DNA of 64,000 bases. It comes from Thermococcus sp. 18S1 (GTDB lineage Archaea; Methanobacteriota_B; Thermococci; Thermococcales; Thermococcaceae). The stretch is from positions 868,001 to 932,000 of the forward strand of contig NZ_SNUU01000001.1 in the NCBI RefSeq assembly GCF_012027645.1, in the 5' to 3' direction. The stretch's first letter is position 1. Each line of letters begins with the position of its first letter. The position numbers and the translations under genes are program-made. Under the pieces are notes generated by a model that was not told the origin of the DNA, did not search any database, and worked only from the letters and a program-made list of their open reading frames with translations. Of the stretch, positions 56,328 to 64,000 are shown piece by piece.

Positions 56328-56603
56328 TTGGGACACACGGTCTACTACATCACCAGAATTGATAGGTGGAAGGAGTTCAGGGGGTTCCTAAAGAAGGTCT
56401 GCGAAGGGCTCGGTTTCAGTTTCCTTGAGGGCGAAGATGCCGTCATAATTTTTCCAGAATGCCCTGGTGCCGAGCCCCTGGAGATAAAGAAGAGAGGTAA
56501 GGGGTTCGTCAAGACGAACCTAGTTGAGCCATGTCACTCGATATATCTCCTCATTCTTCATTCGGTTTCTTCCTTCGGCTCTGTCGAGCTCTGGGAGGAC
56601 TGA
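56328..56603 (+). CDS. Small protein of unknown function
   Basis: 91 residues starting with TTG 56328, after GGTGATAG and a TATA element (TTTTTAAAG, about 56290-56300). The product has an alpha-beta look (TVYYITRIDRWKEFRGFLKKV, then DAVIIFPECPGAEPLEI) with three cysteines and no signal or membrane span. Its 3' end overlaps the minus-strand membrane protein gene by 46 bp, which is unusual and suggests that one of the two ends may be eroded. No family recognised. Confidence 0.6.
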   Translation: MGHTVYYITRIDRWKEFRGFLKKVCEGLGFSFLEGEDAVIIFPECPGAEPLEIKKRGKGFVKTNLVEPCHSIYLLILHSVSSFGSVELWED

Positions 56604-57316
56604 TCCGTGAGATAGACCTCTATAATCCTTGTCGGAACCGCCCCCTTGAGCTTTCTGTCCTCCACGATAAGCTTCACCACCCGGCCGATCTCCAGATCCT
56701 CCACGGCATCGACCCAGTAGTGGCCGGGTTTGACGTTCGCCGCTATGTCGTCGTGCACAAAGACCTTGACGACGTCGCCTTTAATCTCTTCAACAACGCC
56801 GTAGGTGTAGTCCCTTCCGTATTTCTGCTTGAAGTACCACCTGAATGCCATGACGACCGCGAAGACGATCACAAGGTAGCCATAGTAGTAGTACACGGAG
56901 GTCGCTATCTGTTTCAACACAATATAACCCAAAAATGCCCCGAAGGATATTGCGAAGATTGAATAGTAAAAAACTCTATACGGGGAGACCTCTATGAAGA
57001 ACTCTTTATACTGAGTTATGTCATGTCTGATGTATAAAAGGTATAGTATCCCGAGTCCTATAATGTACAGGGGGTTATTCGTCAGCAATAGGGCTCCGAG
57101 ATTAACTAGCAGATACAGAAGGAACATTATTTGTAGCCTTAAGCTTAGGAGCTCATGGATGGTTAGGGGAGTTTTTGTTAGTTTTCTAATGAATTTAAAT
57201 TCGGGAGGATTCTCGGAGGGGGTAGGTAATAGAATTGATTTCAAGATTATTTTGAATCGAATGATACAGCGTTCTGTGAGGTATCCAACTAAGTACATGA
57301 ATTCTATTATCCTCAT
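56558..57316 (-). CDS. Membrane protein with C-terminal soluble beta domain (DUF2101-like)
   Basis: 252 residues from ATG 57316, because GGTGATCAAA lies directly before it. Two pairs of membrane spans are visible (about 60-95 and 115-165), after which a soluble domain follows (YGVVEEIKGDVVKVFVHDD to VVKLIVEDRKLKGAVPTRI), a small beta-barrel-like fold. It resembles the archaeal DUF2101 membrane proteins, with moderate certainty. It is the last gene of the prepilin operon, 16 bp after its neighbour, so a role in pilus assembly is possible. Confidence 0.7.
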   Translation of the reverse strand: MRIIEFMYLVGYLTERCIIRFKIILKSILLPTPSENPPEFKFIRKLTKTPLTIHELLSLRLQIMFLLYLLVNLGALLLTNNPLYIIGLGILYLLYIRHDITQYKEFFIEVSPYRVFYYSIFAISFGAFLGYIVLKQIATSVYYYYGYLVIVFAVVMAFRWYFKQKYGRDYTYGVVEEIKGDVVKVFVHDDIAANVKPGHYWVDAVEDLEIGRVVKLIVEDRKLKGAVPTRIIEVYLTDQSSQSSTEPKEETE

Positions 57317-57332
57317 TTTGATCACCCGATGC

Positions 57333-58412
57333 CTATGGTCCTAAAATTGCATCGCTGCTGGCTGAGTCTAGTATTATTCCATATTCTGAACCTGGAACTG
57401 GGACACCAGTTAGACACGGGGAACCGTCGATTGCACATTGGAGGTAATAATAGTCAATATTAGTTGAACTTGGGAGAGGGGTTCCCCCCAGTGATTTCAG
57501 GGCCTCAAGTAGGACGTTGTCCACTGAAGGCACAGTTAATGTCGCTAATCCAATGGGGAGAGGGGTTTTAATTCCCAGGTCTCTTTGGAACTCGTGAGCT
57601 AGGGACAGATAATGTTCGTGGGTCTGATAATTGATGTTGCCCTCAAAGCGTTCTAAGATTGAGGGATATATTACATTGTCCCCGTCTACTCCGATATAGC
57701 ATTGATCAAGTGCAGCATTGTCCAGTTCTGAGACATTGTAAAATCCGTATTCCGAGCTTGGGAAAGGTATTCTACATGGCTCTATCACACGAGTGTAAAG
57801 GCCATTTAGCTTTCTAGCAATATACGGATCTTCAACTCCTGAGATGCTTAGAATTGAGTACATATACCCACTTTGCGGTAGGTCTCCTTGGTATACCACC
57901 TTTCCAGAGGAGTCTTGGATAGTTATGTCTTTTATTTTTACCCTAACTGCTAGATGAAATGAGTCTAAAGGTGCTACTGTTATTTCCAAGTGATTGGAGA
58001 CGAATTCATCTGGATCGTTGGGTGTTATTGTCATCCCTTGGGCTTGGAGATATGTTACAACATTTCCAAACCAGTATTTAAGTGTGAACTTGTTTAGTTC
58101 GGTTTGTTTTACACCATTAATCTCTCCGTATACTATGAGGTCCTCCATGGTTTCAGAGGCATCGTTGACAAATCCATTGGAAATTACATACTCTGTCATC
58201 GTAAGATACGACTTCTTCATGCTGAGGTCAATTGCGTTTCTTAGATCCTCCTGCATGCCAAGGATGTCAAAGTACTCTCTTTCCACTTGTGTTCTCTCAT
58301 TCTGCGCGAAAATAATGCTGGAAGATGCACTCTCGTATGTGGCAAGAAGAAGTAGTAATGGTATCATGAGCAGTAAAATAGTTGTATTCAAAAGGAATGC
58401 CCGGTGTTTCAT
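57333..58412 (-). CDS. Prepilin-like secreted protein, 359 residues
   Basis: The N-terminus MKHRA-FLLNTTILLLMIPLLLLLATYE fits a class III (prepilin peptidase) signal: a short basic leader, cleavage after Ala, then an uninterrupted hydrophobic helix. The rest is a large extracellular domain with several cysteines (DQCYIGV, QCAIDGSPCLTG). It begins one base after the stop of the 865-residue gene. No specific family recognised. It is probably a minor pilin or adhesin subunit of the structure encoded by the operon. Confidence 0.75.
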   Translation of the reverse strand: MKHRAFLLNTTILLLMIPLLLLLATYESASSSIIFAQNERTQVEREYFDILGMQEDLRNAIDLSMKKSYLTMTEYVISNGFVNDASETMEDLIVYGEINGVKQTELNKFTLKYWFGNVVTYLQAQGMTITPNDPDEFVSNHLEITVAPLDSFHLAVRVKIKDITIQDSSGKVVYQGDLPQSGYMYSILSISGVEDPYIARKLNGLYTRVIEPCRIPFPSSEYGFYNVSELDNAALDQCYIGVDGDNVIYPSILERFEGNINYQTHEHYLSLAHEFQRDLGIKTPLPIGLATLTVPSVDNVLLEALKSLGGTPLPSSTNIDYYYLQCAIDGSPCLTGVPVPGSEYGIILDSASSDAILGP

Positions 58413-58413
58413 A

Positions 58414-61011
58414 TTATCCCCTCCATATCCTTAATGTTACCTCTATTGGGCCTAGTGACTTGGGAACGTTTTTAATGCCTATACTCTTTGCGGAGAGACC
58501 TTGGAGTCTAATAAGGATAGGATTGTTTTGGGTTCCCGGTAGTTCGGTGTAATCTTCTCTGGCCCCGAGTTGGATAAAGAGACGGAATATAGCATCGTCT
58601 AGGGCGTATTCCTCTGGGTTGAGTGAAGATGCTTTGATTTCAATGGGAGTCTCCCCTGGCTTACAGTTTCCAATTGTTACTGTATCTTGACCTAACTGCC
58701 CACTTAGATTATACCAATAGCTGAGTCTATATCCACAGGCTCCTTCTTGAGAGTACTTGGGGAATATATTGCCATATGGAACATATCCATAAAGGAAATA
58801 GCGGACGAGGGCTCTGCTATCATTGTATCTAAACGTATAATACGAGGAATCACTGATGATTTTAAACGTATTTTCCTGTCCTGGAACCATTATATTGGCC
58901 GTGAGTCTGCGGTATGCAACGCGTATTAGGTACAGATCTAGTGGGAACGTCAGGAAATTGTTTTCAGCATTTTGGCCCTCGTAGAGTTTTGTGGTCCCTG
59001 TGGGATAGGGCACAAAGTGGATGGCGCTCCATACATCCACATACCATGGAATAGCCTTTTCTGGAAGATAATACGAAAACTGCATGCCAGTGTACGTATC
59101 GGCATCCTGTGCCCAATCTGGTTGGTCTCCGGTTGGCTCTAGTATCCTAAGCTCTTCTTGAGGAATATAAAACCTGTTTATCTTGACATCACTGTCGTAT
59201 TGAACCCTTATGAATGAATTTGGATATCCGTATAACCTCCTATGGTTGCTCCATGAGGTGTTGTAGTCTTGGCCGGCGTATCTAATAACCCTATCCTCAT
59301 CGGGGTCGTAGTATGCATCGAGCAGTATAATCAGATTGAAATTCTTTTTATTGAGATCATCGAGGGTTGTGTATTGGAGGATCCCATTCAAAAGTGTTTC
59401 ACTGGGAATAACTAGTGTAGTTTTGTTGCCATCTAAGGTGGTGTTGATATATACTGGCTTCAACGTCGTTCCGTCTGAGTAGTATATTCTCACTTCATGG
59501 ATTCCTTCGACTGTGAGAGTGGCCTCGATACCCCTTATTTCTCCAGGGGCAAAAATGGAGTTGAGATAATAAATTCCAGTACAGGAGCTATTAACATCGT
59601 AGAGCTTAAGCAGCCCAGGATCTTGAACACTTGGGCTTGTGGTAGTGTATGTTAAATAGAGCCAGCTACCACTTCCAAATCCTATCTCATCATCACCATA
59701 ACTTCTGAAAACCGCTGTCACTTTGTTTGTGCCCCCGTGGAAGAATGAGCTTACATTCTGGTTGTATGGATTGCTTGGGTTCCCGTTGATCGTCACCATC
59801 ATTGTCTCGTATGTGGATCGTTGTGCAGCGTGCCACTGTCCATCTATTCCTGACGCGTCTGGGGGAAGAGCAACGTTAAATCCTATTTGAAGCGTGTTAT
59901 ACGGGGAGATGTAATACTCTGCTTCCGAAACAGTTAGCGCCTCCTGAGACACCTTTGAGCTGGAGATATACTCCTTTACAAACCATGTTTTTTTCCCGTG
60001 GCCTTCCCAATGTCCCGTCCAAACTACAGTCAGATAGACTTCATCGGGATACATCACGATATAATTGCCGTTAGGGTAGTAGTATGTTATACTCATGATT
60101 TGGTACTCTTCAGTTAACTGGTTTCCAGTTAGACTACGTGATAAATTAGTATACGCCTCTATTATAAGATACCCGCCGGAATATATTCTGAGCCGTCCGA
60201 TGCTACCGTCGGGATAGAAATCGTAGTCCACGGATGTTGCACCTAGGTTCTCGTTTATGTTAATAATTGAGGAGTTGTATCTGCCAATAAACTTAAACTG
60301 GCCCGAGTTTATTCTGTTTGTATCAAAACTCCAGTCGAACGGATGAGTAGCTTGATAGTAAAATGTGACCTGCTGAGGGCTAATCTCATAACTTTTCGGG
60401 TTAGGGTTGATACCTCCCGCAAGAACCCTTTGAATTCCTATTAACTCCCTCCTTACAAAAGATCCTTTTGTAAGCTGGGCTTTGGCCACGTATCCCCTGG
60501 GAAGAGTGTTCTTAACATATCCACTCACCATTGTTGTGGCAACTCCGACATCCTTTGCCTCTTGGTACGAATTATCAAACGTCAGAAATGGGCTGGTGTA
60601 GTCGTCAATGATTAATTGGTACTTATAGCCTTGGGATAGCGCTTGAAGTATGTATCCTAGGATAGTTTCGGCTTTTTCCTGGTAGGATGGCTCAGAAGGA
60701 ACGATATCGTTGATTGCCCAGTACGTTGCTGCGATGTCGAGAGGTGGCATGTCTGGCGTGACATAGGTTAGGTCTAGAGTTCCGTCTTTTATCCATGAAT
60801 CAATAACTGCGGGATCTACGAGTTGGTTAAGCCCCGCGGTTCTCATCGTCTCAAGGATATCTTGGGCGATAGCTTTGTTCCGGCTTTGGAGTGTGGGGGA
60901 ATAGACTTTTGAAGGGCTCCCTGTTATGGATACAATGCTTGCAATTATCATAAGTGTCAAGAGGAAAGAAAGAAGTGCATCAAGAGTGAATATAAACCCT
61001 TGTCGTTTCAT
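58414..61011 (-). CDS. Giant prepilin-like protein, 865 residues
   Basis: The N-terminus MKRQG-FIFTLDALLSFLLTLMIIASIV is a class III signal (leader KRQG, cleavage before Phe, hydrophobic helix with an early Asp). The following 830 residues are an extracellular, beta-rich domain full of Tyr, Asn and Ser, with N-glycosylation sequons. Most archaeal pilins are 100-200 residues, so this is exceptionally large; an adhesin carried at the pilus tip is a reasonable idea. It overlaps the 484-residue gene upstream by 4 bp. No family recognised. Confidence 0.75.
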   Translation of the reverse strand: MKRQGFIFTLDALLSFLLTLMIIASIVSITGSPSKVYSPTLQSRNKAIAQDILETMRTAGLNQLVDPAVIDSWIKDGTLDLTYVTPDMPPLDIAATYWAINDIVPSEPSYQEKAETILGYILQALSQGYKYQLIIDDYTSPFLTFDNSYQEAKDVGVATTMVSGYVKNTLPRGYVAKAQLTKGSFVRRELIGIQRVLAGGINPNPKSYEISPQQVTFYYQATHPFDWSFDTNRINSGQFKFIGRYNSSIININENLGATSVDYDFYPDGSIGRLRIYSGGYLIIEAYTNLSRSLTGNQLTEEYQIMSITYYYPNGNYIVMYPDEVYLTVVWTGHWEGHGKKTWFVKEYISSSKVSQEALTVSEAEYYISPYNTLQIGFNVALPPDASGIDGQWHAAQRSTYETMMVTINGNPSNPYNQNVSSFFHGGTNKVTAVFRSYGDDEIGFGSGSWLYLTYTTTSPSVQDPGLLKLYDVNSSCTGIYYLNSIFAPGEIRGIEATLTVEGIHEVRIYYSDGTTLKPVYINTTLDGNKTTLVIPSETLLNGILQYTTLDDLNKKNFNLIILLDAYYDPDEDRVIRYAGQDYNTSWSNHRRLYGYPNSFIRVQYDSDVKINRFYIPQEELRILEPTGDQPDWAQDADTYTGMQFSYYLPEKAIPWYVDVWSAIHFVPYPTGTTKLYEGQNAENNFLTFPLDLYLIRVAYRRLTANIMVPGQENTFKIISDSSYYTFRYNDSRALVRYFLYGYVPYGNIFPKYSQEGACGYRLSYWYNLSGQLGQDTVTIGNCKPGETPIEIKASSLNPEEYALDDAIFRLFIQLGAREDYTELPGTQNNPILIRLQGLSAKSIGIKNVPKSLGPIEVTLRIWRG

Positions 61012-62462
61012 TGGTTCTCACCCCCAAGGTCGTCCCACACCTCGGCTCTCAATAGGATACTGTCAAATTTTGGAGCAAGGAATGGCTCGAGGTTGGGGGT
61101 TATACTGATCTGAACAGAGGACCTATCCCATCTGGATATAGAATACATCCATAATCCTATTACTTCTCCCTCTGATCCACTACATAAATCTTTCAGTGGG
61201 ATACTTACTGAGGAATCTCCAGAATACCTCTTTATTTGTTTGTTTCCCTGGTATACCACAACTGCATTCAGCTTGCCATCTTGCTCGTTCCTGTATATTT
61301 TAAGTCCTGTCAACTGAGAGCCGCTTATAATCACAAACTCTATACTTCCGGCACTTTCAGGGGCAGATACTGTAAAGCTACCGCTCTCGGGTACCTGATA
61401 TTTTAGCCTACCGTAGATTAGGGGGTTTCTGTCAGAGGGGCCACCTGAGAGGTCATATTGAATCCTTCCGACAATTGAAATTCTCTCTGCGACCTCAGTC
61501 CATGGGGACCGCTTCTTTGAATCGTCTATCTCGTCTGGTTCAACCACTATTGCCCCGTTTATTACTGCGAACCGGTATGTAGCTTCTTTTTTCTCTATAA
61601 GTTCGTCATATGTCGTATACTTTGCCCATATCTCGGGGCGGGAGTTGTCATATGCAGTAACAGTTAAGACTACGTTTCCCTTTCCTGTGAACTTGAATGA
61701 ATACGGGCACTCGCCCCCTCCAAAATTCAGTTTGAAGTTGCTGGTTTCGGGACCGGTAATGTAAATTTCTATAGTTGAGTCGGCGGGGATAATGTAATTT
61801 TCAACGTATTTGCCCCTTTTTGCCTCGATGTATACCACTTGGCCGGTTACGAACTTTATATGGTCCCCCTCCATTAAATCAAGGTTGTTTCCTTTTTTGA
61901 GGTCGCAGATGGAGTCGTCTACGTAAGTAACACCATTACGCTGTATTTCCACGTAAGTTACGGTAAAGATGGTGTTTCCTTTTGAGTCTCCTGCCATCAT
62001 GAAATTTATGCCTGGGGGGTTGTCATTGGGATTCTCAAAGGTTTTGTTATATAGGTATACCGTGGGAAAGTCTCCTGTTATTCCGATTTGGAACTCTGAG
62101 AGGTAGCCTTCAAGAAGAACGTCTCGGTAGTTGGCCATCTTTGCAATAATTGTCTTTAGGATTTCTTTATAGTTGGAAAGAGCCTCCAGTTTGTAATAGT
62201 CTAAGGAATAAAGGCTGTTGTTTTCCCTCAATCCAATAACCTCTGTGTTTGAGGGATTGGTTGCCCAGTTGGCCGGTTCTCCTGGGCTCTTTGTCATGAT
62301 ATCGAGCACATTATCCGCTATGTTGGCTCGTTCGTACCATCCTAACATTGTGGTTATCTCGTTCTGCAGGGTACTCGAAGTACTGTTTACTGTGCCTAGG
62401 ATGAATATCACAAGAACTAATGCAAGCATTGCATCAAACGAAAATAACTGTGCCCTCCTCAT
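61008..62462 (-). CDS. Prepilin-like secreted protein, 484 residues
   Basis: The N-terminus MRRA-QLFSFDAMLALVLVIFILGTV fits a class III signal: RRA, cleavage before Gln, an acidic residue at position 6 of the mature form, then a hydrophobic helix. A large extracellular beta-rich domain follows (residues 30-484). It overlaps the neighbours on both sides by about 4 bp (ATGA type), so the operon is translationally coupled. No family recognised. Confidence 0.75.
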   Translation of the reverse strand: MRRAQLFSFDAMLALVLVIFILGTVNSTSSTLQNEITTMLGWYERANIADNVLDIMTKSPGEPANWATNPSNTEVIGLRENNSLYSLDYYKLEALSNYKEILKTIIAKMANYRDVLLEGYLSEFQIGITGDFPTVYLYNKTFENPNDNPPGINFMMAGDSKGNTIFTVTYVEIQRNGVTYVDDSICDLKKGNNLDLMEGDHIKFVTGQVVYIEAKRGKYVENYIIPADSTIEIYITGPETSNFKLNFGGGECPYSFKFTGKGNVVLTVTAYDNSRPEIWAKYTTYDELIEKKEATYRFAVINGAIVVEPDEIDDSKKRSPWTEVAERISIVGRIQYDLSGGPSDRNPLIYGRLKYQVPESGSFTVSAPESAGSIEFVIISGSQLTGLKIYRNEQDGKLNAVVVYQGNKQIKRYSGDSSVSIPLKDLCSGSEGEVIGLWMYSISRWDRSSVQISITPNLEPFLAPKFDSILLRAEVWDDLGGENQ

Positions 62463-62950
62463 GTTCTCACCACATTCACTTCGATTATTACAGTTTCCCC
62501 ATTGATATTTAGAGTCTGGTCAGTTACCTTTTGAGCATCAGTATTTCGGCTTATGTCATTCACAATGAATCTAAGGATATTGGTTTCAATCTGTTCTGGT
62601 TCCATGGCAACCATCCCCGAATACGAGATAGTGACTTTGACAGTCATTGTGTTCCCGGCTTTGCTTGTTGTGATGGATGTCACTCTGAATGCAGTGTATG
62701 TATAATCTGAGGCCGTTATAATGCTGTTGAGGGGATCGTAAATTCCATCTTTTGTATTAACGATCACTCCTGCGTTCAAGTATGTACATGCATGGGATGC
62801 GGAGGTTTTTACATAAGTGACAGTTGAAATCTCTCTGTTCTCATCGAGATATGCGGGAACGATAATTAGAATCCCTGTTAGGATTATTGCTGTAATAAAC
62901 AGAACCTCGACAGCAACTTGTCCCTTACGATGATGCCTGGAGCGTGACAT
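62459..62950 (-). CDS. Archaeal type IV pilin-like protein, 163 residues
   Basis: The start at ATG 62950 has GGAGGG upstream, inside the end of the preceding gene (26 bp overlap). The class III signal is RHHRKG-QVAVEVLFITAIILTGIL: cleavage after Gly, Glu at position 5 of the mature pilin and a hydrophobic helix. The remaining ~120 residues form a compact beta-rich head with one cysteine. Typical length of an archaeal pilin. Confidence 0.85.
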   Translation of the reverse strand: MSRSRHHRKGQVAVEVLFITAIILTGILIIVPAYLDENREISTVTYVKTSASHACTYLNAGVIVNTKDGIYDPLNSIITASDYTYTAFRVTSITTSKAGNTMTVKVTISYSGMVAMEPEQIETNILRFIVNDISRNTDAQKVTDQTLNINGETVIIEVNVVRT

Positions 62951-63377
62951 AGAGTTTTCCCTCCTTCTCGTTGTACGTAGCTACTATCCAGAATTCTTCC
63001 TGTCCTCTTTTGAGTACTACTGAGCTGGTCGCATATATCGGGACTGGACTCTTTTGGTATGTAGTATAGGTTTTGCCCTCAATGACTGCGGTTACTTTTA
63101 TCAAGTCTCCTGGATCTATTAGTGTTATTACAATACTGTCACTATCTGATTTCAAGGGGATTGGGGACTCTTTTTTTATTTTGAATCCATCTCCAACGGA
63201 GTAGCCTTTTACAACAGTGTCTCTAACATCCACGGAGAATATTTTAAGCCTGGTGGTGATATCAAATGTTCTAGCATGCCCTGTCTCAATATTGGCAATA
63301 TAGGCTATGTTAAGCATCGTGATGGCAATTAATGTAACTGCAAACAGGAAGTCAAGACTTACCTGGCCCCGCCTCAT
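62925..63377 (-). CDS. Archaeal type IV pilin-like protein, 150 residues
   Basis: ATG 63377 (MRRGQVSLDFLF) is preferred over the longer frame to 63443, which lies wholly inside the upstream gene. The signal is RRG-QVSLDFLFAVTLIAITML with Asp at position 5. The head domain is about 115 residues with alternating charged strands (IVITLIDPGDLIKVTAVIEG). It overlaps its downstream neighbour by 26 bp and starts near the stop of the first pilin. Confidence 0.83.
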   Translation of the reverse strand: MRRGQVSLDFLFAVTLIAITMLNIAYIANIETGHARTFDITTRLKIFSVDVRDTVVKGYSVGDGFKIKKESPIPLKSDSDSIVITLIDPGDLIKVTAVIEGKTYTTYQKSPVPIYATSSVVLKRGQEEFWIVATYNEKEGKLYVTLQASS

Positions 63378-63379
63378 CG

Positions 63380-63931
63380 TCACCCACCGGGCCTGATGTT
63401 TATTGTGATTTCGAGATAGTTGCCGGAGGTCTTGGTGCTCCATCCTTCATCCTCGCCGGGGTCCCACGTAACTACTATCCTTATGGACTTCGAAGGGAGG
63501 CCGTCTGAAAACGAGAGGTCATCGAAGTTTGCCAGGCTGTAGGGAACCTCTGTGGATACGGTGTTCTTATTTGCCCCGCTTGTAACAGAGCTGTCACCCA
63601 CCCATATAAGCACGGAGTCTTGGGTTCCTCCCATCGTCACCTTCGTGGAGCCAAAGGCCTTCTGGAGGTAATCCGGCTCGGCGAGGTATGTGACCTTTAC
63701 ATAGGTGGTGGACTTTGCACCGGGTCCTTGAGCGTACACCTGCGCTATGGTGCCGGCTATCGCGTTGGCGAGGCTCTTCTCCTCGAGGAGCACCTGCATT
63801 TTAAGGGTCTCCGTTGAAGTTGAACCCTGCTGGAACGTGATGCTGTTGACTGAATAGAGCAGAAGTATGAGCATTATCCCGAACACGAGCATGAATTCCA
63901 ATGACACCTGGCCACGTCTCGCAATCTTCAT
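63380..63931 (-). CDS. Archaeal type IV pilin-like protein, 183 residues
   Basis: First gene of the operon. The signal is MKIARRG-QVSLEFMLVFGIMLILLLYS with Glu at position 5, the best class III signal of the set. The head domain follows (about 150 residues). The start has GAGGGGAATGGT upstream and a TATA element at about 63969-63979. The pilin ATPase and platform protein that would be needed for assembly are not in this window. Confidence 0.86.
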   Translation of the reverse strand: MKIARRGQVSLEFMLVFGIMLILLLYSVNSITFQQGSTSTETLKMQVLLEEKSLANAIAGTIAQVYAQGPGAKSTTYVKVTYLAEPDYLQKAFGSTKVTMGGTQDSVLIWVGDSSVTSGANKNTVSTEVPYSLANFDDLSFSDGLPSKSIRIVVTWDPGEDEGWSTKTSGNYLEITINIRPGG

Positions 63932-63968: not shown

Positions 63969-63979
63969 ATTTAATGGTT
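63969..63979 (-). promoter_or_regulatory. TATA element of the prepilin operon
   Basis: CATTAAATAG on the minus strand lies about 40-48 bp before the ATG of the first pilin gene. No other promoter is obvious inside the seven-gene operon, whose genes overlap or nearly touch, so the whole block to 56558 may be one transcript. Confidence 0.45.
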
Positions 63980-64000
63980 GCCCTCGGATTTTTCGGCCGT

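What the first reader, a model, noticed from the sequence alone, without database searches (positions are those of the whole stretch)
56558..63931. Prepilin operon with outsized members (359, 484 and 865 residues)
All six genes from 63931 down to 57333 begin with a sequence that fits archaeal prepilin peptidase cleavage: RRG-QVSLEF, RRG-QVSLDF, RKG-QVAVEV, RRA-QLFSFD, RQG-FIFTLD, HRA-FLLNTT. Three are ordinary pilins, but three carry very large extracellular domains. Gene overlaps show one coupled operon ended by a membrane protein. Inference: a pilus or cell-surface complex with large tip or adhesin subunits.
Basis: partly seen in the sequence, partly recalled or inferred. Interest (0 to 1): 0.6.

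Follow-up and report, generated by a model that had tools for sequence, protein, structure and literature searches.

The report
Archaeal pilus-tip operon with swapped domains
This stretch of a heat-loving archaeon's genome encodes a known set of small and oversized pilus subunits, probably the tip of its hair-like pili, and comparison of 41 relatives shows that the exposed parts of the three large subunits are repeatedly replaced by recombination while their anchoring ends stay fixed, as expected for a fast-changing surface-recognition device.

Summary
Six consecutive minus-strand genes (63931 to 57333) encode proteins with class III-type N-termini, three of them large (484, 865, 359 aa), followed by a DUF2101 membrane protein. 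The locus is the known Thermococcales 'clade 1' type IV pilus minor-pilin locus: CetZ and squalene-cyclase-like genes lie just upstream; ATPase and platform genes are about 260 kb away. Gene order is the same in all 40 other Thermococcales loci examined.

Three things go beyond the known description. (1) N-terminal motifs are invariant in 41/41: acid at +5 in the three small pilins, Asp at +6 in the 484 and 865 families, and no acid in the first 21 residues of the 359 family, the last pilin gene: the reported signature of a GspK-like tip subunit. (2) Most 359-family orthologues (up to 1217 aa) carry an inserted DUF2341 domain; the window's copy lacks it, and its 865-aa partner has a different insert. 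(3) The ectodomains are hypervariable and swapped between strains: G000 and G049 are 94-99% identical in neighbouring genes but 41% and 38% in the 865 and 359 families; in L066/L079 essentially only the p865 ectodomain is replaced.

Best reading: a modular, recombining pilus-tip complex. Its ligand is unknown.

The parts
63971..64000 (-). 3' end of a 209-aa membrane protein gene (m209) that begins beyond the window; then CetZ and a secreted squalene-cyclase-like protein further upstream
   Evidence: same order in the Thermococcales loci examined
63380..63931 (-). p183, small minor pilin, RRG|QVSLEF (Glu+5)
   Evidence: PF04021, 25.9 bits, over cut-off; motif 41/41
62925..63443 (-). p172, small minor pilin, RRG|QVSLDF (Asp+5); probable true start 63377
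   Evidence: motif 41/41; start inferred from orthologues
62459..62950 (-). p163, small minor pilin, RKG|QVAVEV (Glu+5)
   Evidence: motif 41/41; PF04021 below cut-off
61008..62462 (-). p484, modular minor pilin, RRA|QLFSFD (Asp+6); orthologues 331-918 aa, some with bactofilin-like repeats
58414..61011 (-). p865, modular minor pilin, RQG|FIFTLD (Asp+6)
59896..60414 (-). p865 residues 200-372: insert present in 9 of 41 orthologues (type A); modelled with low confidence
58789..59172 (-). p865 residues 614-741: jelly roll resembling the carbohydrate-binding-type domain of BcsB
   Evidence: VIA Z 10.0, rmsd 3.0, 112 aligned
57333..58412 (-). p359, HRA|FLLNTT, no acidic residue in mature positions 1-21; candidate tip-initiating subunit
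57669..57701 (-). p359 residues 238-248: site where most orthologues carry a 380-866-residue insert, most with DUF2341
56558..57325 (-). DUF2101 membrane protein, last gene of the operon
   Evidence: family present in 79 of 81 Thermococcales genomes

Best explanation
The six genes encode the minor-pilin (tip) set of a Thermococcales type IV pilus: three small minor pilins (p183, p172, p163) and three modular pilins (p484, p865, p359), each a conserved N-terminal prepilin helix plus a large grafted ectodomain. Inferred mechanism: a prepilin peptidase (the A24-family gene at C1:212 kb) removes the short leaders; p359, which lacks the acidic residue that would pair with the N-terminus of a subunit above it, starts assembly and ends up at the tip; p865 and p484 follow, then the small minor pilins link to the major pilin (probably the 55-66-aa stand-alone pilins). 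The ATPase and two platform proteins at C1:668-672 kb drive extrusion. The ectodomains act as exchangeable recognition modules: their middle parts are replaced by recombination between strains and genera while the assembly ends are kept. Shown here: operon conservation, motif classes, modular inserts, recombination and domain swapping. Inferred: processing, tip location, assembly order, ligand binding.
For: Conserved order in all 40 other loci examined and p865 found in 75 of 81 Thermococcales genomes. Motifs invariant 41/41, with the first acidic residue at +5, +6, or none before +22. Published signature of first-in-pilus subunits: lack of Glu5, large size, last gene of the minor-pilin cluster (PMC5207764; PMC9934059). 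DUF2341 in 15 of 22 p359 orthologues. DUF2341 and epd genes of the M. maripaludis pilus are hit in a transformation screen (PMC10133366). p865 jelly roll with Z 10 to BcsB. Recombination: type A p865 is one clade in its own tree (94/95) but needs 5 changes on the CetZ tree and at least 3 on a tree of three neighbouring genes; p865 and p359 identities track each other (rho 0.55) but not CetZ, the radical-SAM neighbour or DUF2101 (rho -0.19 to 0.10); L066/L079 share residues 1-176 and the last ~20 of p865 but little between.
Against: No direct evidence that the proteins are cleaved, assembled, or at the tip. Foldseek and VIA did not show a clear pilin or GspK relationship for p359. In the window p359 is not the largest pilin. 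From general knowledge, some archaeal pilins lack Glu5 without being tip subunits, so that signature is weaker in archaea. The Asp+6 motif has no precedent that I tested. Jelly rolls are common, so a carbohydrate ligand is only suggested.
Confidence: 0.68

Rival explanations
1. The large proteins form a stationary cell-surface complex (bindosome-like) rather than a pilus tip: class III-processed, membrane-held binding proteins that capture sugars or polymers.
For: Class III signal peptides are also used by non-pilus surface assemblies such as the Sulfolobus bindosome (PMC4858521). p865 has a carbohydrate-binding-like domain. ATPase and platform genes are not in the operon.
Against: Three ordinary minor pilins are coupled in the same operon in every locus. 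The literature places this locus in the clade 1 pilus system. No transporter genes are in the operon. The no-acid subunit as last pilin gene is a filament-tip signature.
Confidence: 0.15
2. The tip complex is chiefly a DNA-uptake device (competence pilus); the variable ectodomains bind DNA or select DNA sources.
For: Pili, and a DUF2341 protein in the epd locus, are needed for transformation of Methanococcus maripaludis, and Thermococcus kodakarensis and Pyrococcus furiosus are naturally competent (PMC10133366).
Against: DNA is chemically uniform, so a DNA receptor gives little reason for ectodomains to diverge to about 25% identity between near-identical strains. The two functions are compatible, however.
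Confidence: 0.3
3. The divergence is ordinary fast evolution of exposed proteins, without recombination.
For: Surface proteins evolve fast in archaea generally (PMC9425974).
Against: Identity drops abruptly from 98-100% to about 25% inside one gene and rises again. p865 relationships contradict those of neighbouring genes with strong support. Other T4P or secreted proteins of the same pair (G000/G049) are 97%, 96-98% and 82% identical.
Confidence: 0.04

Closest known systems
Archaeal clade 1 (Epd-type) type IV pilus of Thermococci and class I methanogens (Szabo 2007; Makarova 2016, PMC4858521)
   Same: This is the same locus type: several class III minor pilins, FtsZ-family and squalene-cyclase genes adjacent, large DUF2341 proteins proposed as tip adhesins, small stand-alone major pilins.
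   Different: The window's variant lacks DUF2341 in its p359. The three motif classes, the no-acid last subunit and the domain swapping were not found in the text of that paper.
HIJK minor pilins of T2SS/T4aP, capped by GspK (PMC5207764, PMC9934059)
   Same: One subunit of an operon-encoded set lacks Glu5, is last in the cluster, and has a large domain inserted in the pilin part.
   Different: No sequence or clear structural similarity found; the extra domains are beta-rich, not helical.
Streptococcus sanguinis PilABC tip complex with modular lectin and adhesin pilins (PMC9934059, PMC8179133)
   Same: Modular pilins with grafted binding domains, and one subunit without Glu5, thought to sit at the tip.
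   Different: Here three modular pilins instead of two, and it is the no-acid subunit itself that usually carries the large DUF2341 module; hypervariable among strains.
VARTIG hypervariable Ig module of Thermococcales (PMC8416519)
   Same: Same order of archaea; a large surface protein whose distal part is shuffled by recombination between genomes; proposed recognition role.
   Different: VARTIG gene content differs at every locus and is patchy; this operon is nearly universal with fixed order, and belongs to a type IV pilus.
UpsA-based species-specific aggregation in Sulfolobales (PMC7064770)
   Same: Variable pilus regions decide recognition partners.
   Different: There the variable parts are in the pilin filament; here in minor, modular subunits.

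Membership tests
Clade 1 / Epd-type archaeal T4P | Five or more class III minor pilins in one locus | tested here: met
   six in the window, motif 41/41 in each family
Clade 1 / Epd-type archaeal T4P | FtsZ-family and squalene-cyclase genes at the Thermococci locus | tested here: met
   PF00091/PF21011 and PF13243 directly upstream
Clade 1 / Epd-type archaeal T4P | Secretion ATPase and two TadC-like proteins | tested here: met
   PF00437 and two PF00482 proteins at C1:668-672 kb, unlinked
Clade 1 / Epd-type archaeal T4P | ATPase falls in clade 1 of the ATPase tree | not tested
   no ATPase tree was built
Clade 1 / Epd-type archaeal T4P | Large DUF2341 protein in the locus | tested here: not met
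   absent from the window's proteins; present in 15 of 22 p359 orthologues; reported as commonly found, not strictly defining
Clade 1 / Epd-type archaeal T4P | Prepilin peptidase in the genome | tested here: met
   PF01478 at C1:212344, next to a 55-aa prepilin; PF06847 gave no match
GspK-like tip pilin (p359) | No glutamate at +5 | tested here: met
   41/41, no acid before +22
GspK-like tip pilin (p359) | Last gene of the minor pilin cluster | tested here: met
   last pilin gene in all loci examined
GspK-like tip pilin (p359) | Clearly larger than the other pilins | tested here: inconclusive
   often the largest (up to 1217 aa) but not in the window or the type A loci
GspK-like tip pilin (p359) | Pilin fold related to GspK | tested here: inconclusive
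   no clear match; Neisseria PilV among weak rows at Z 2.6
Modular type 4 pilin (p484, p865, p359) | Prepilin leader and hydrophobic N-terminal helix | tested here: met
Modular type 4 pilin (p484, p865, p359) | Extra domain grafted on the pilin part | tested here: met
   conserved ends, variable middle
Modular type 4 pilin (p484, p865, p359) | Incorporation in a filament | not testable with these tools
   needs proteomics or microscopy
VARTIG module | Different gene combination at each locus | tested here: not met
   constant order in all 41 loci

The most novel reading that the evidence does not exclude
The tip of this archaeal pilus is a hypervariable recognition device: three modular pilins whose binding domains are exchanged by recombination within and between genera, serving self/non-self recognition, escape from viruses that use the pilus, or switching of attachment targets; an archaeal counterpart of antigenic variation, built on a GspK-like tip subunit.
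Probability: 0.35. Interest if true: 0.75.

Novelty: new variant of a known kind. Interest (0 to 1): 0.56.

Why it matters
Archaeal pilus tips are poorly characterised. The invariant motif classes give a testable assembly order (p359 first), and would suggest that a tip subunit lacking Glu5 is a rule shared by bacterial and archaeal filaments. The swapped ectodomains show where selection acts and offer natural domain swaps, such as L066/L079, for finding the ligand.

Tried and rejected
Pfam, NCBIfam, PHROGs and PDB sequence searches gave nothing for the window's large proteins. Weak hits such as lipocalin, albumin I and TauE were rejected as below cut-off. Foldseek for p359 gave no significant match, and the VIA rows are under Z 6; for p865 Foldseek's top rows are large multi-domain beta proteins with TM-scores about 0.1, not taken as homology. 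I tested whether the p865 insert (200-372) and the p359 insert are the same domain moved between genes: no cross-family BLAST hit at E 0.01, so 'domain moved' is rejected at that sensitivity; only the mutual exclusion stands (9 of 9), and since type A is one clade in the p865 tree it is not nine independent events. Silent donor copies in the own genome: a p865 search found only the one copy, so local cassette switching like pilE/pilS is unlikely for p865. PF06847 peptidase: no match. A wider search found p865 relatives only in Thermococcales plus one distant unnamed archaeal MAG; methanogen genomes lie outside the GTDB phylum searched, so the M. maripaludis DUF2341 protein was not compared directly.
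Full report
1. What is there. The window is part of a Thermococcales-type genome (G000, 2.0 Mb; window = C1:868001-932000). On the minus strand, from 63931 down to 56558, lie p183, p172, p163, p484, p865, p359 and a DUF2101 membrane protein. The genes overlap or almost touch. Upstream, beyond the window end, are a 209-aa protein, a CetZ-type tubulin homologue and a secreted squalene-cyclase-like protein. A secretion ATPase with two platform proteins sits at C1:668-672 kb. An A24-family prepilin peptidase sits at C1:212 kb beside a 55-aa prepilin, and two more small prepilins (62 and 66 aa) at C1:1496 kb. These have the size of the major pilin of Methanococcus maripaludis (PMC3875500), so they are candidates for the major pilin (inference).

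2. It is a known locus. Makarova et al. 2016 (PMC4858521) describe the clade 1 type IV pilus system of Thermococci and class I methanogens, with at least five class III minor pilins, large DUF2341 proteins proposed as PilY-like tip adhesins, and FtsZ-family and squalene-cyclase genes in the Thermococci loci. ATPase clade membership was not tested here.

3. Conservation. A search with p865 found it in 75 of 81 Thermococcales genomes and DUF2101 in 79 of 81. In 40 loci read in full the order squalene cyclase - CetZ - m209 - p183 - p172 - p163 - p484 - p865 - p359 - DUF2101 is the same, apart from a squalene-cyclase match missing in L059 and a DUF2101 match missing next to the operon in L074. A profile search of the GTDB phylum found p865 only in the family of the window. 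One unnamed archaeal MAG (L105) has a distant version with the same order and a last subunit that again lacks an early acidic residue (G|IIYTLFAIVLI).

4. Three motif classes. With position 1 as the first residue after Gly/Ala of the leader, p183, p172 and p163 have Gln1 and an acidic residue at 5; p484 has Gln1 and Asp6; p865 has Phe/Tyr1 and Asp6; p359 has Phe/Tyr1, Asn4 and no acidic residue before position 22. Each holds in 41 of 41. In bacteria the subunit that starts the filament is the one without Glu5; it is usually large and encoded last (PMC5207764; PMC9934059). p359 meets two of these three features everywhere, and the size feature in many relatives but not in the window. I infer that p359 is the tip-initiating subunit. 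This is weaker in archaea than in bacteria because, from general knowledge, some archaeal pilins lack Glu5.

5. Modular ectodomains. p359 orthologues range from 359 to 1217 aa because of an insert at residues 238-248. DUF2341 is found in 15 of 22 p359 orthologues scanned and not in the window's copy. The window's p865 has an insert at 200-372 that 9 of 41 orthologues share (type A); all nine have a short p359. The two inserts are not detectably homologous. p484 varies from 331 to 918 aa, some copies with bactofilin-like repeats.

6. Structure. AlphaFold gives p359 a mean pLDDT of 89 with one long N-terminal helix, but no clear structural relative. p865 has mean pLDDT 77, with the insert poorly modelled; residues 614-741 form a jelly roll matching BcsB at Z 10.0 (rmsd 3.0, 112 aligned), followed by CBM-type and viral jelly rolls at Z 6-7. 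A shared fold does not show a ligand.

7. Recombination. Among the 41 loci, pairwise identities of p865 correlate with those of p359 (rho 0.55) but not with CetZ, the radical-SAM neighbour or DUF2101 (rho -0.19 to 0.10), whereas controls agree (CetZ with radical-SAM 0.58, CetZ with m209 0.70). Type A is one clade in the p865-core tree (94/95), but well-supported branches of the CetZ tree force five changes and those of a three-gene tree at least three. G000 and G049 are 94-99% identical in radical-SAM, squalene cyclase, CetZ and m209, but 41% in p865 and 38% in p359; elsewhere in the same pair a secreted protein beside the ATPase is 97% identical, the ATPase 96-98%, and a secreted DUF2341 protein 82%. 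In L066 versus L079 the DNA is 94-100% identical from CetZ through p484, p359 is 99% at its core (with a dip to 79-90% DNA identity in its insert), but p865 matches only over residues 1-176 and the last 20 or so; the ectodomain between is a distant homologue, and the L066 version is closest to proteins from another genus. L069/L072 shows the same pattern in all three large genes. No second p865 copy was found in the own genome, so donors are presumably other strains.

8. Interpretation. A minor-pilin tip complex with exchangeable recognition modules explains the operon, the motif classes, the inserts and the swaps. What it recognises is unknown: surfaces, other cells, polymers, DNA, or viruses that exploit it. 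Two published parallels are the VARTIG module of Thermococcales (PMC8416519), also recombining but with unstable gene content, and the modular tip pilins of Streptococcus sanguinis (PMC9934059). A Thermococcales pilin family with a variable region (arCOG04026) was listed in PMC9425974; whether it is one of these families I could not establish, so prior notice of part of the variability is possible.

9. Verdict. The locus type is known; the motif logic, loss of the DUF2341 module and domain swapping appear not to be described, as far as the searches here could show.

Noticed in passing
G049:C1:2007984-2011415 (relative's genome): The orthologue of the pilus ATPase is an open frame of 1146 aa matching the query as 1-460 and 457-622 with about 500 aa between: probably an intein in the pilus ATPase.
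   Followed up: no
L005:11756-13984 (upstream of the window end): The secreted squalene-cyclase-like protein is itself highly divergent and swapped between close strains (L050/L052 50% vs L050/L053 96%).
   Followed up: partly
L128:4012-5397 and L129:3951-4384: Small stand-alone prepilins (55, 62, 66 aa), one directly upstream of the A24 prepilin peptidase; candidate major pilins.
   Followed up: partly
L054:8588-11344: 918-aa p484 orthologue with a long run of beta-solenoid (bactofilin-like) repeats; this locus has neither the p865 nor the p359 insert.
   Followed up: partly
L105:8619-13071: An unnamed archaeal MAG carries a distant version of the same five-pilin arrangement, with a last subunit lacking an early acidic residue.
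   Followed up: partly
L088, L098: Contigs labelled Thermoproteota and Altiarchaeales carry typical Thermococcales p865/p359 genes: probably mis-binned contigs.
   Followed up: no
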